Shown here: piece after piece, positions 17,761-19,764 of the stretch
How positions within the stretch are numbered: position 1 is the first letter of the stretch
Layout: each line of letters starts with the position of its first letter
Virus record (IMG/VR): IMGVR_UViG_3300027749_000058
Location: 1 to 64,000 of that record
Strand: one strand, 5' to 3'
Source of the DNA: a virus
Length of the DNA stretch: 64,000 nt
Made by a program: the position numbers and the translations under genes
Notes under the pieces: generated by a model
Seen by the model: only the letters and a program-made list of their open reading frames with translations
What the model was told of the DNA's origin: nothing
Databases searched by the model: none

Positions 17761-17768
17761 TATCTTTG
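17761..17768 (+). promoter_or_regulatory. Host-type promoter TATCTTTG
   Basis: TATCTTTG four bases before the first stem of the RNA at 17773. Confidence 0.65.
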
Positions 17769-17772
17769 TATA

Positions 17773-17825
17773 GAGTTTGGAACTTACAGGTAATGAAAGA
17801 TACTCGGTATCCAAACTCAAAAAAA
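17773..17825 (+). ncRNA. Candidate compact RNA (about 50 nt)
   Basis: GAGTTTG (17773-17779) pairs with CAAACTC (17812-17818), and inside it GATAC (17799-17803) pairs with GTATC (17807-17811), so the two stems can stack with an 18-base one-sided bulge. The predicted start of transcription coincides with the first stem. No ORF. Confidence 0.5.
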
Positions 17826-17852
17826 AGATTTGACGGTTTGAAAAAGTCTTCT

Positions 17853-17860
17853 TATCTTTG
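17853..17860 (+). promoter_or_regulatory. Extended promoter shared with the tandem RNA units
   Basis: The 32 bases ending here (TTTGACGGTTTGAAAAA, then TTATCTTTG) match nearly base for base the promoters at 18800-18831 and 19112-19143. Confidence 0.7.
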
Positions 17861-17868
17861 AAAAAGAA

Positions 17869-17942
17869 ATCGGGAAGAAAGTAAAAATGTACCTGAAGTG
17901 AGGATGAAAAAATCATCACACCAAATGGTTTGGAATCCCGAT
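17869..17942 (+). ncRNA. Candidate 74-nt structured RNA
   Basis: ATCGGGA (17869-17875) pairs with TCCCGAT (17936-17942) at the ends; an inner hairpin pairs GTG and ATG (898-906) with CATCAC (914-919). It begins 8 bases after the promoter. An ORF from 17898 would run through this RNA, which argues for the later start at 18006 for the RHH gene. Confidence 0.5.
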
Positions 17943-18005: not shown

Positions 18006-18164
18006 ATGGGAAGAAATAAAAAAGAAAAAGAAAAACAAAAAGTTAGATTTGGAATTAGTATCTCGCCTGAAGTAAATAAAACTTTAGATTCTTTAATGAT
18101 TAACAAATCGAAACTTATTGAGAGTTTATTAAAAAAATATTTAGATGACAAAAAAGTGTTCTAA
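18006..18164 (+). CDS. Ribbon-helix-helix (CopG/Arc-like) DNA-binding protein
   Basis: 52 residues. A very basic start (MGRNKKEKEKQK) leads into the beta strand VRFGISISPEV, helix A NKTLDSLMI and helix B SKLIESLLKKYLDD, a complete RHH fold that would dimerise and bind an operator. It is next to the repeated promoters, which are natural candidate targets. Its end overlaps the HNH gene by 20 bases. Confidence 0.8.
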   Translation: MGRNKKEKEKQKVRFGISISPEVNKTLDSLMINKSKLIESLLKKYLDDKKVF

Positions 18165-18687
18165 ATGTAATATTGAGAAAGATTTATCTGAATTTAATTC
18201 AAGAAAAGGAATTAAAGATGGTAAAAGACCTGAATGTAAAATATGTGGAAAACAGGTAAGAAAAGTTTATTATGAAAGACCTGAAATTAAAACTAAATAT
18301 AAAACTAGTAAGTGTGAATATAATAAAATAAATTCTGATAAAGTTAAATCTCGTAGGAATAGATGGTTCAGAAAAAAAACAGAAACAGATATTTTATTTA
18401 GATTAAGAAGAAATTTAAGAAATAGGATTTATAAATTTATTGGAAAATCATCAATAAGGACAAAAGATATTGTTGGAATAGAATCTAATGAACTAAAAAA
18501 TTATCTTGAAAATCAATTCAATGACGGGATGTGTTGGGAAAATTATGGTGAGTGGCAAATTGACCACATTATACCATTATCATCGGCAATAACTGAAGAA
18601 GAAATTTATAAACTATGTCATTATACAAATCTTCAACCATTGTGGAAAATAGATAACATAAAAAAAAGTAATAAAATTATATGGTAA
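18145..18687 (+). CDS. HNH homing-type endonuclease
   Basis: 180 residues. N-terminal zinc ribbon-like CSKCNIEKDLSEF and CKICG, a basic central stretch (VKSRRNRWFRKK), then the HNH core WQIDHIIPLSSA and LCHYTNLQPLWKIDNIKKSNK. Such free-standing phage nucleases often promote their own spread. Its last five bases overlap the start of the tRNA-Phe gene at 18683, a typical invasion point for mobile genes. Confidence 0.88.
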   Translation: MTKKCSKCNIEKDLSEFNSRKGIKDGKRPECKICGKQVRKVYYERPEIKTKYKTSKCEYNKINSDKVKSRRNRWFRKKTETDILFRLRRNLRNRIYKFIGKSSIRTKDIVGIESNELKNYLENQFNDGMCWENYGEWQIDHIIPLSSAITEEEIYKLCHYTNLQPLWKIDNIKKSNKIIW

Positions 18688-18791: not shown

Positions 18792-19103
18792 CAATAAAGT
18801 TTGACGGTTTGAAAAAACTATCTTATCTTTGTAAAAGAAAAAGACAGAGGTTAATTTTTAAGTGGTGTTTTCTATAATCATCCTTAGTTTTTTCTTCCTC
18901 TTTAAACCAAGAGAAAATGGTAATAAAATATAGTAAGGTTTGCAGGAATGGAATATCCTCAATTCACCTAAAGTAATTAAAATCATATCAAGTTCTTTTT
19001 ACGGTGTTTTTATCTTTGATGTAAAACAAAAGAATGTCTTTCTTTACGAGTTGCCGACTCAAATGAAGTTCTAAGAGATGAACAATTTTCTTAGGATATT
19101 CGC
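18792..19103 (+). ncRNA. Tandem structured-RNA unit, copy 1
   Basis: First of three units with a period of about 311 bases. It opens with promoter TTTGACGG... TATCTTTG (18824-18831). Hairpins: ACAGAGG with CCTCT near 18844 and 18896; GGTG with CATC (18863-18882); AGGA with TCCT (18944-18959); GAGT with ACTC near 19049-19060; CTAAGA with TCTTAG (19071-19094). A second TATCTTTG inside the unit (19011-19018) could start a shorter RNA. No ORF of meaningful length is shared between copies. Confidence 0.65.
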
Positions 19104-19414
19104 CAATAAAGTTTGACAGTTTGAAAAAACTATCTTATCTTTGTAAAAGAAACGGACAGAGGTTATTTTTTAAGTGGTGTTATTACAATCATCCTTAATT
19201 CTTTCTTCCTCTTTAAACCAATAAAAGAAACAAACAAAATGTAAAAAGGTATATAGGAATGGAATATCCTGAATTCACCTCAAGTAATTAAAATCATATC
19301 AAGTTCTTTTTACGGTGTTTTTATCTTTGATGTAAAACAAAAGAATGTCCTTCTTTATGAGTTACCGACTCAAATGAATTTTTAAGAGATGAACAATTTT
19401 CTTAAAATATTCGC
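19104..19414 (+). ncRNA. Tandem structured-RNA unit, copy 2
   Basis: About 85-90% like copy 1. Promoter at 19136-19143 and internal TATCTTTG at 19322-19329 are kept. The last stem has changed on both sides: TTTAAGA with TCTTAAA (19381-19406) instead of CTAAGA with TCTTAG, a compensatory change from C-G to T-A. That supports an RNA whose structure is under selection. Confidence 0.65.
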
Positions 19415-19735
19415 CAATAAAATTTGATTGTTTGAAAAAACTTTCTTATCTTTATAAAAAAAACGGACAGAGGGTTTATTTTCAGTGGTGGTTTCCCATA
19501 CTCACCCATGAGATTTGTAATTTTCCTCTTTAAACTAAAAACAAATCCAAAATAAAACACGGGAGGATTATAAGAATGGTATTCTTTGTCTACCCTTAAT
19601 ATGATAAAATTAACCAAGTCTTTTTTAGTTGTTTTTGACTTTAAATAAAAACAGAAAGATGTCCTCTTTCAGGGTAAACGGAAAATCAACCCATCTACAA
19701 ATGATTCCACAATTTTTCCTGACGGGGAATTCTAA
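19415..19735 (+). ncRNA. Tandem structured-RNA unit, copy 3 (diverged)
   Basis: Same order of blocks but much diverged. Its -7 box is TATCTTTA, one base off. The first hairpin region is GGTGG with TCACC, and the mid hairpin is AAGAAT with ATTCTT (19572-19586) where copies 1 and 2 have AGGA with TCCT, again paired changes. The 3' third no longer aligns well. The unit runs into a strong terminator. Confidence 0.55.
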
Positions 19736-19764
19736 GGAGACACGACGGTGTCTCCTTTTTTTTT
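19736..19764 (+). terminator. Strong terminator closing the RNA array
   Basis: GGAGACAC paired perfectly with GTGTCTCC over the tetraloop GACG, then nine T. Confidence 0.92.

What the first reader, a model, noticed from the sequence alone, without database searches (positions are those of the whole stretch)
18792..19764. Three tandem ~311-base structured RNA units with compensatory changes
Copies start at 18792, 19104 and 19415 and end in a strong terminator. They share no ORF. Stems are kept through paired changes: CTAAGA/TCTTAG in copy 1 becomes TTTAAGA/TCTTAAA in copy 2, and AGGA/TCCT in copies 1-2 becomes AAGAAT/ATTCTT in copy 3. Copies 1 and 2 each contain two TATCTTTG promoters, so each unit may encode two RNAs. 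Tandem ncRNAs of this sort in phages act as decoys, anti-defence RNAs or RNA-polymerase regulators; which of these applies is unknown.
Basis: partly seen in the sequence, partly recalled or inferred. Interest (0 to 1): 0.78.

Follow-up and report, generated by a model that had tools for sequence, protein, structure and literature searches.

The report
New pseudoknotted phage RNA, tripled here
The three repeats are copies of a previously undescribed RNA, about 270 bases long and folded by five pseudoknots, that is normally present once beside a phenylalanine-tRNA gene in large (up to about 320 kb) Bacteroidota-type phages; it makes no protein, its function is unknown, and it gives giant phages another large structured RNA to explain besides the known one called GOLLD.

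Summary
Copies at 18792, 19104 and 19415 (spacing 312/311) each have a TTTG-N20-TATCTTTR promoter; only copy 3 has a terminator. Homologues from 42 other IMG/VR phage records (up to 326 kb) show a family absent from Rfam 15, reference phages, plasmids and (one exact motif) GTDB genomes. A multi-pseudoknot fold is supported by 35 covarying pairs over 22 sequences: 80.7% of cells paired, about 50% when slid one base. Two hairpins carry an invariant YGACGG loop; the second is the terminator. There is no conserved reading frame. In the 40 other records scanned whole the RNA is single-copy; in all 23 loci inspected it lies 1-130 nt after a tRNA-Phe(GAA)-like gene. Only this window has a tandem array; copies 1-2 lack the 3' hairpin and terminator, and nearly every long-range helix pairs best within its own copy. 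The 'second promoters' (19011, 19322) have no -33 box and form part of a pseudoknot, so two RNAs per unit is not supported. Four long records carry both this RNA and GOLLD at separate loci. Best reading: a trans-acting, GOLLD/ROOL-like (not homologous) phage RNA tied to tRNA-Phe/translation. Structure is near certain; function is inferred.

The parts
17761..17768 (+). -7 box (TATCTTTG) ahead of the leader hairpin
   Evidence: sequence
17773..17818 (+). leader hairpin R1hp (GAGTTTGGAACTTACAGGTAATGAAAGATACTCGGTATCCAAACTC); same element heads GOLLD operons in huge phages
17829..17860 (+). promoter TTTG-N20-TATCTTTG (position of the tRNA promoter in relatives)
17867..17942 (+). second small conserved hairpin element R2 (ATCGGGA..TCCCGAT), followed by boxA-like AGTTCTTTGA; also in L141 and L179
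18683..18758 (+). tRNA-Phe (GAA), the constant upstream neighbour of the RNA family
18800..18831 (+). promoter of copy 1 (TTTGACGGTTTGAAAAAACTATCTTATCTTTG)
18842..19096 (+). copy 1 of the RNA: helices A-K, no M hairpin, no terminator, copy-specific end stem 19069-19096
19011..19018 (+).
19112..19143 (+). promoter of copy 2
19154..19407 (+). copy 2 of the RNA: same domain set as copy 1, end stem 19379-19407
19423..19454 (+). promoter of copy 3 (TTTG..TATCTTTA, as in L074, L081, L089, L100)
19465..19729 (+). copy 3, the canonical full-length RNA: helices A-M with five pseudoknots
19654..19670 (+). hairpin J (GAAAG-ATGTCCT-CTTTC) whose loop TGTCC pairs with 5' GGACA (19465-19469)
19716..19729 (+). 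hairpin M, TTCC(TGACGG)GGAA; YGACGG loop invariant in 20 of 20 full-length members
19734..19757 (+). intrinsic terminator AAGGAGACA(CGACGG)TGTCTCCTT followed by a T run; CGACGG loop in 18 of 20

Best explanation
The element is a stand-alone, trans-acting phage non-coding RNA (about 270 nt plus terminator). Shown: every copy has its own Bacteroidota-type promoter; the canonical copy ends in an intrinsic terminator; the RNA has a conserved compact fold in which the 5' GGACA pairs with a 7-nt hairpin loop, two further hairpin loops are pinned by pseudoknots, and two H-type pseudoknots lie between and after them; it ends in twin YGACGG hairpins; it encodes no conserved peptide; and in every locus inspected it is next to a tRNA-Phe(GAA)-like gene. 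Inferred: it works like the orphan 'ornate' phage RNAs GOLLD and ROOL, that is, an abundant, self-folding RNA body (alone or with a host protein on the YGACGG hairpins) acting on the translation/tRNA side of the infected cell. In this phage the unit was duplicated in tandem; copies 1-2 lack the 3' hairpin and terminator, so transcripts from promoters 1 and 2 should run on to the single terminator as linked multi-unit RNAs whose units each fold on their own.
For: Covariation over 22 sequences: 35 pairs and 135 cells changed on both sides, 80.7% of cells paired against 72.2% in shuffles and 49-51% when slid by one column (the first 19 sequences). The hand-cut cores (chosen for pairing, so biased) pair 59/60 in helix D against 30.9 shuffled; whole D regions pair better with their own partner, -7.5 against -4.3 kcal/mol on average. 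Loop C with the ACACGGG motif: CTATA/TATAG in copy 1, TTACA/TGTAA in copy 2, 11 consecutive pairs in L150. Each copy's long-range helices favour their own copy, except D of copy 2 (-3.6 own, -3.7 with copy 1). No conserved ORF; downstream genes differ. tRNA-Phe(GAA)-like gene 1-130 nt upstream in 23 of 23 loci; in L150, L188, L196, L232 and L234 the RNA follows the tRNA's CCA directly. The same leader heads GOLLD operons, and this RNA and GOLLD lie in the same 317-321 kb and 182 kb records.
Against: No transcript or protein partner data. Adjacency to tRNA-Phe and a shared leader are guilt by association; tRNA operons could be merely convenient. The RNA is a third to two thirds of GOLLD's length and shares no sequence or Rfam match with it, so equivalence of function is a guess. 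Helices K, L and outer H are weak or ambiguous in some members (57-79% of cells paired in the MAFFT alignment), and L150/L188 have no clear helix D. Copies 1-2 may be decaying duplicates.
Confidence: 0.4

Rival explanations
1. Cis-acting leader: a riboswitch or attenuator for the next virion gene, with the intrinsic terminator as expression platform.
For: It sits directly upstream of genes, ends in a terminator, and the next gene is often a virion-type protein.
Against: The terminator hairpin is conserved with its own loop and no alternative antiterminator pairing was seen; at least four unrelated-looking downstream gene types occur (AYN..GT virion-type protein, MKKFF.DLF, MACNYYEI.., MKDLIRKIL..); in the window three units stand in tandem.
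Confidence: 0.1
2. RNA decoy or anti-defence RNA: it titrates a host nuclease or sensor, with tandem copies raising dosage; the tRNA-Phe-like gene could be a second decoy.
For: Phage-only distribution, copy gain in one phage, tRNA-like partner with odd structure (bulged acceptor, extra D-loop hairpin) in most relatives, twin hairpins with an invariant loop.
Against: No defence protein is known to me to bind such a motif; the whole fold, not only one motif, is conserved; nothing in the neighbourhood suggests anti-defence genes.
Confidence: 0.2
3. RNA-polymerase regulator (6S-like).
For: It is transcribed from host-type promoters.
Against: No long promoter-mimicking hairpin with a central bubble; the RNA is a chain of pseudoknots; no Rfam match to a 6S family.
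Confidence: 0.05
4. Small-peptide gene: ATGGACAGCGGAATG... encodes MDSGM.. peptides.
For: 15 of 22 members have ATG starting two bases before GACAG.
Against: Start absent in 7, the distance to the next block falls in all three frames, and the peptides differ in every frame; both sides of the helices covary.
Confidence: 0.02
5. Ribozyme or RNA-processing element acting on the neighbouring tRNA-Phe precursor.
For: Compact multi-pseudoknot fold with invariant segments; direct fusion to the tRNA 3' end in five loci inspected (L150, L188, L196, L232, L234).
Against: No known ribozyme family matches; spacing from the tRNA varies from 1 to 130 nt, with a promoter in between in most records.
Confidence: 0.08

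Closest known systems
GOLLD RNA (Rfam RF02032)
   Same: Large pseudoknotted non-coding RNA of phages, near tRNAs, headed by the same R1hp leader in huge Bacteroidota-type phages; function unknown (PMC12286853).
   Different: 416-position conserved domain (whole RNA often over 800 nt, PMC12286853) against about 270 nt; no sequence match; both occur at separate loci in the same genomes.
ROOL RNA
   Same: Phage/prophage RNA near tRNA islands with multiple pseudoknots and no known protein partner (PMC12286853).
   Different: No Rfam hit here; ROOL is about twice as long (from memory).
ToxI-type (type III) antitoxin RNA
   Same: Tandem pseudoknot RNA units with a terminator.
   Different: Units of about 36 nt next to a ToxN toxin gene (from memory); here 311-nt units with their own promoters and no toxin gene following.
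tmRNA
   Same: Chain of pseudoknots; phage copies exist.
   Different: No tRNA-like domain or tag frame inside the RNA; ARAGORN and Rfam do not call it.

Membership tests
GOLLD (RF02032) | match to the GOLLD covariance model (150 bits) | tested here: not met
   no GOLLD hit in the window or at the RNA loci; GOLLD lies elsewhere in G035, G039, G044, G055
GOLLD (RF02032) | phage location near tRNA genes | tested here: met
   tRNA-Phe(GAA)-like gene 1-130 nt upstream in 23/23 loci
GOLLD/ROOL-type ornate RNA | homo-oligomeric RNA cage | not testable with these tools
   needs cryo-EM or mass photometry
any Rfam 15 family | covariance-model match at gathering score | tested here: not met
   only tRNA and sub-threshold noise
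6S RNA | long hairpin with central bubble mimicking an open promoter | tested here: not met
   consensus fold is a pseudoknot chain; no Rfam match
type III antitoxin (ToxI) | adjacent ToxN-like toxin gene | tested here: not met
   next gene is a LamG-domain virion-type protein
cis-regulatory leader / riboswitch | constant type of downstream gene | tested here: not met
   at least four downstream gene types
tmRNA | tRNA-like domain and tag reading frame | tested here: not met
   ARAGORN and Rfam negative on the RNA

The most novel reading that the evidence does not exclude
A new class of RNA-only or RNP machine of giant phages that works with tRNA-Phe: five pseudoknots fold one chain (or link several chains as kissing loops, as in GOLLD/ROOL cages), and in this phage three diverged, self-specific copies form one linked transcript, a natural RNA trimer.
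Probability: 0.15. Interest if true: 0.85.

Novelty: new variant of a known kind. Interest (0 to 1): 0.62.

Why it matters
Large structured RNAs of phages are few and unexplained. This adds a well-supported family (43 records including the window) with a consensus fold, a constant tRNA-Phe partner, and coexistence with GOLLD in the same genomes, so questions such as 'why do giant phages carry big folded RNAs next to tRNAs' gain a second, smaller test case suited to probing and cryo-EM. The natural triplication gives built-in variants of each pseudoknot.

Tried and rejected
Exact pattern built from the three window copies (no hits, too specific). blastn to reference phages: only the shared promoter matched in two huge phages. 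Single-sequence folds gave no common structure; RNAalifold without pseudoknots recovers only 24 pairs. Marinobacter genome hit was chance inside what looks like a coding sequence. Weak CM hits of 20-23 bits at G036, G047, G034, G022, G013, G012: the three that align with each other (G036, G047, G022) lie in one long coding frame; none was taken as a copy. Idea that this RNA replaces GOLLD in the same operon slot: rejected, because both occur in the same genomes. Peptide idea rejected. Plasmid hit marginal, 32 nt at E 0.09. No published description found in the open-access library.

Full report
What is there. The three units are real: direct repeats starting at 18792, 19104 and 19415, copies 1-2 86% identical, copy 3 more distant. 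Each has a Bacteroidota-type promoter, TTTG-N20-TATCTTTR (18800, 19112, 19423); the first two match the strict consensus. Only copy 3 ends in a terminator (19734-19757 plus a T run). The window lies in a 110.9-kb virus record.

The 'second promoters'. TATCTTTG at 19011 and 19322 has no TTTG 18-20 nt upstream. In the consensus fold this stretch is the loop of hairpin I and pairs with the AAG element upstream (helix H; in copy 3 GTC/GAC, in L071 GCC/GGC, in L081 TGT/ACA). So one RNA per unit is the simplest reading.

Homologues. blastn in relatives of the phage found copy-3-like sequences. Conserved-motif scans then gave 26, 32 and 31 stretches, and four further records came through the leader element: 42 records besides the window. 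There is no hit in reference phages for two homologues queried, no convincing one in plasmids, no Rfam family, and no real hit for one exact motif among GTDB genomes. A covariance model of the 5' 106 nt finds exactly one strong copy (76 bits or more) in each of the 40 other positive records scanned whole, and three in the window (93, 71 and 68 bits). The triplication is therefore peculiar to this phage. The held records are mostly fragments, so copy number elsewhere is a lower bound.

The fold. Reading the homologues side by side gives: A, 5' GGACA with TGTCC in the 7-nt loop of hairpin J; B, GCGGA/TCCGC (GAGAG/CTCTC, GAGGG/CCCTC); C, GGTG/CACC; D, a pseudoknot from just after C to just after B; N, loop C (CCCATA) with the ACACGGGAGG motif; E closing the F and G hairpins; H pairing into the loop of hairpin I; J; K/L, an H-type pseudoknot; M, NNNN-YGACGG-NNNN; then the terminator, again with a CGACGG loop. 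MAFFT alignments not fitted to the structure support it: 19 sequences, 82.3% of cells paired, 30 pairs covarying; 22 sequences, 80.7%, 35 pairs, 135 cells, against 72.2%, 23.7 and 58.6 in shuffles and 49-51% paired when slid by one. Hand-cut helix cores are biased towards pairing, but even so D pairs 59/60 against 30.9 when shuffled, and the region-swap test gives -7.5 kcal/mol own against -4.3 swapped. N is mostly invariant in canonical members (with two A-C mismatches) but is replaced by CTATA/TATAG in copy 1, TTACA/TGTAA in copy 2 and 11 consecutive pairs in L150. The C-G to U-A change in helix A of L150/L188 is a further compensatory event. Weak points: K, L and outer H are paired in only 57-79% of cells in the automatic alignment; L150/L188 have no clear D.

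Copies 1 and 2. They keep A, B, C, D, N, F, G, H, I, J and K but lack M and the terminator, ending in a private stem (19069-19096; 19379-19407). A, N, D and H of copies 1 and 3 pair best within their own copy or an identical one; copy 2's A and N also favour self (or an identical partner), while its D does not discriminate from copy 1. This argues for selection on self-contained folding after duplication. With no terminator, transcripts from promoters 1 and 2 should read through to 19757 (inference).

Coding. Fifteen of 22 members carry ATG just before GACAG, but seven do not, and the distance to the next block falls in all three phases, giving unrelated peptides. Non-coding.

Twin hairpins. 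YGACGG is the loop of M in 20/20 full-length members and of the terminator in 18/20, with stems that vary by compensation. CGACGG occurs only four times in the 64-kb window, once in a terminator, so it is not a general habit of this phage's terminators. A protein-binding handle is the natural inference.

Neighbourhood. In 23 of 23 loci inspected a tRNA-Phe(GAA)-like gene lies 1-130 nt upstream (L099's loop is ambiguous). In most relatives this tRNA has a one-base bulge in the acceptor stem and an extra D-loop hairpin, and ARAGORN misses it. In the L150-type group the RNA begins right after the tRNA's CCA, so the two share a transcript. Upstream is a 46-nt leader hairpin (R1hp), found in at least 119 viral stretches, followed by a boxA-like GTTCTTTRNA in 51 of 90 contexts. 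The same leader heads GOLLD operons in huge phages. In G035, G044, G055 (317-321 kb) and G039 (182 kb) GOLLD and this RNA occur in one genome at separate loci. Downstream genes differ between phages, which with the private promoter and terminator speaks for a trans-acting RNA.

What it probably does. GOLLD and ROOL are phage RNAs of unknown function near tRNA islands that form RNA-only cages; GOLLD rises during lysis and was reported to bind ribosomes in pull-downs (PMC12286853). By position, leader, tRNA linkage and pseudoknot density this RNA works in a similar setting, but it fails the membership test (no model match). I put about 0.95 on 'real structured non-coding RNA family', and 0.4 on the stated GOLLD-like, translation-side explanation. 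Decoy or anti-defence (0.2), cis-regulation (0.1), processing ribozyme (0.08), 6S-like (0.05) and peptide (0.02) are the rivals.

Novelty. A new RNA family of a recognised kind (orphan large phage RNA), with an unusual natural tandem triplication in one phage. No description was found in the open-access papers searched; most subscription papers and bioRxiv preprints could not be searched.

Noticed in passing
window 17773-17818; at least 119 viral stretches: A 46-nt leader hairpin with varying but complementary outer stem and near-invariant GATGAAAGATACTCGGTA follows a promoter in many large phages, is often followed by boxA-like GTTCTTTRNA (51 of 90 contexts), and heads GOLLD operons; it looks like a phage antitermination leader for untranslated operons and may deserve its own study.
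   Followed up: partly
L070-L102, L141, L150, L188, L196, L232 upstream of the RNA: tRNA-Phe(GAA)-like genes, most with a one-base bulge in the acceptor stem and an extra hairpin in the D loop, missed by ARAGORN in most loci; the window's own copy (18683) is a normal tRNA.
   Followed up: partly
window 17867-17942; L141; L179: A further small conserved hairpin element (ATCGGGA..ATGTACCTGAAGTGAG..CACCAAATGGTTTGGAATCCCGAT) with its own promoter.
   Followed up: no
window 18145-18684: HNH/endonuclease VII-like gene together with a ribbon-helix-helix-like ORF (18006-18161) lies between the leader elements and the tRNA; relatives lack this insertion at that place.
   Followed up: partly
window 18683 and 55180: Two tRNA-Phe(GAA) genes in one phage, one in the main tRNA cluster and one tied to the pseudoknot RNA.
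   Followed up: no
L130, L136, L138, L179: Huge-phage contigs carry both tmRNA and GOLLD in or near their tRNA clusters.
   Followed up: no
L123, L124, L126: Coding sequence resembling polyphosphate kinase 2 in relatives of this phage (recognised from memory, not tested).
   Followed up: no
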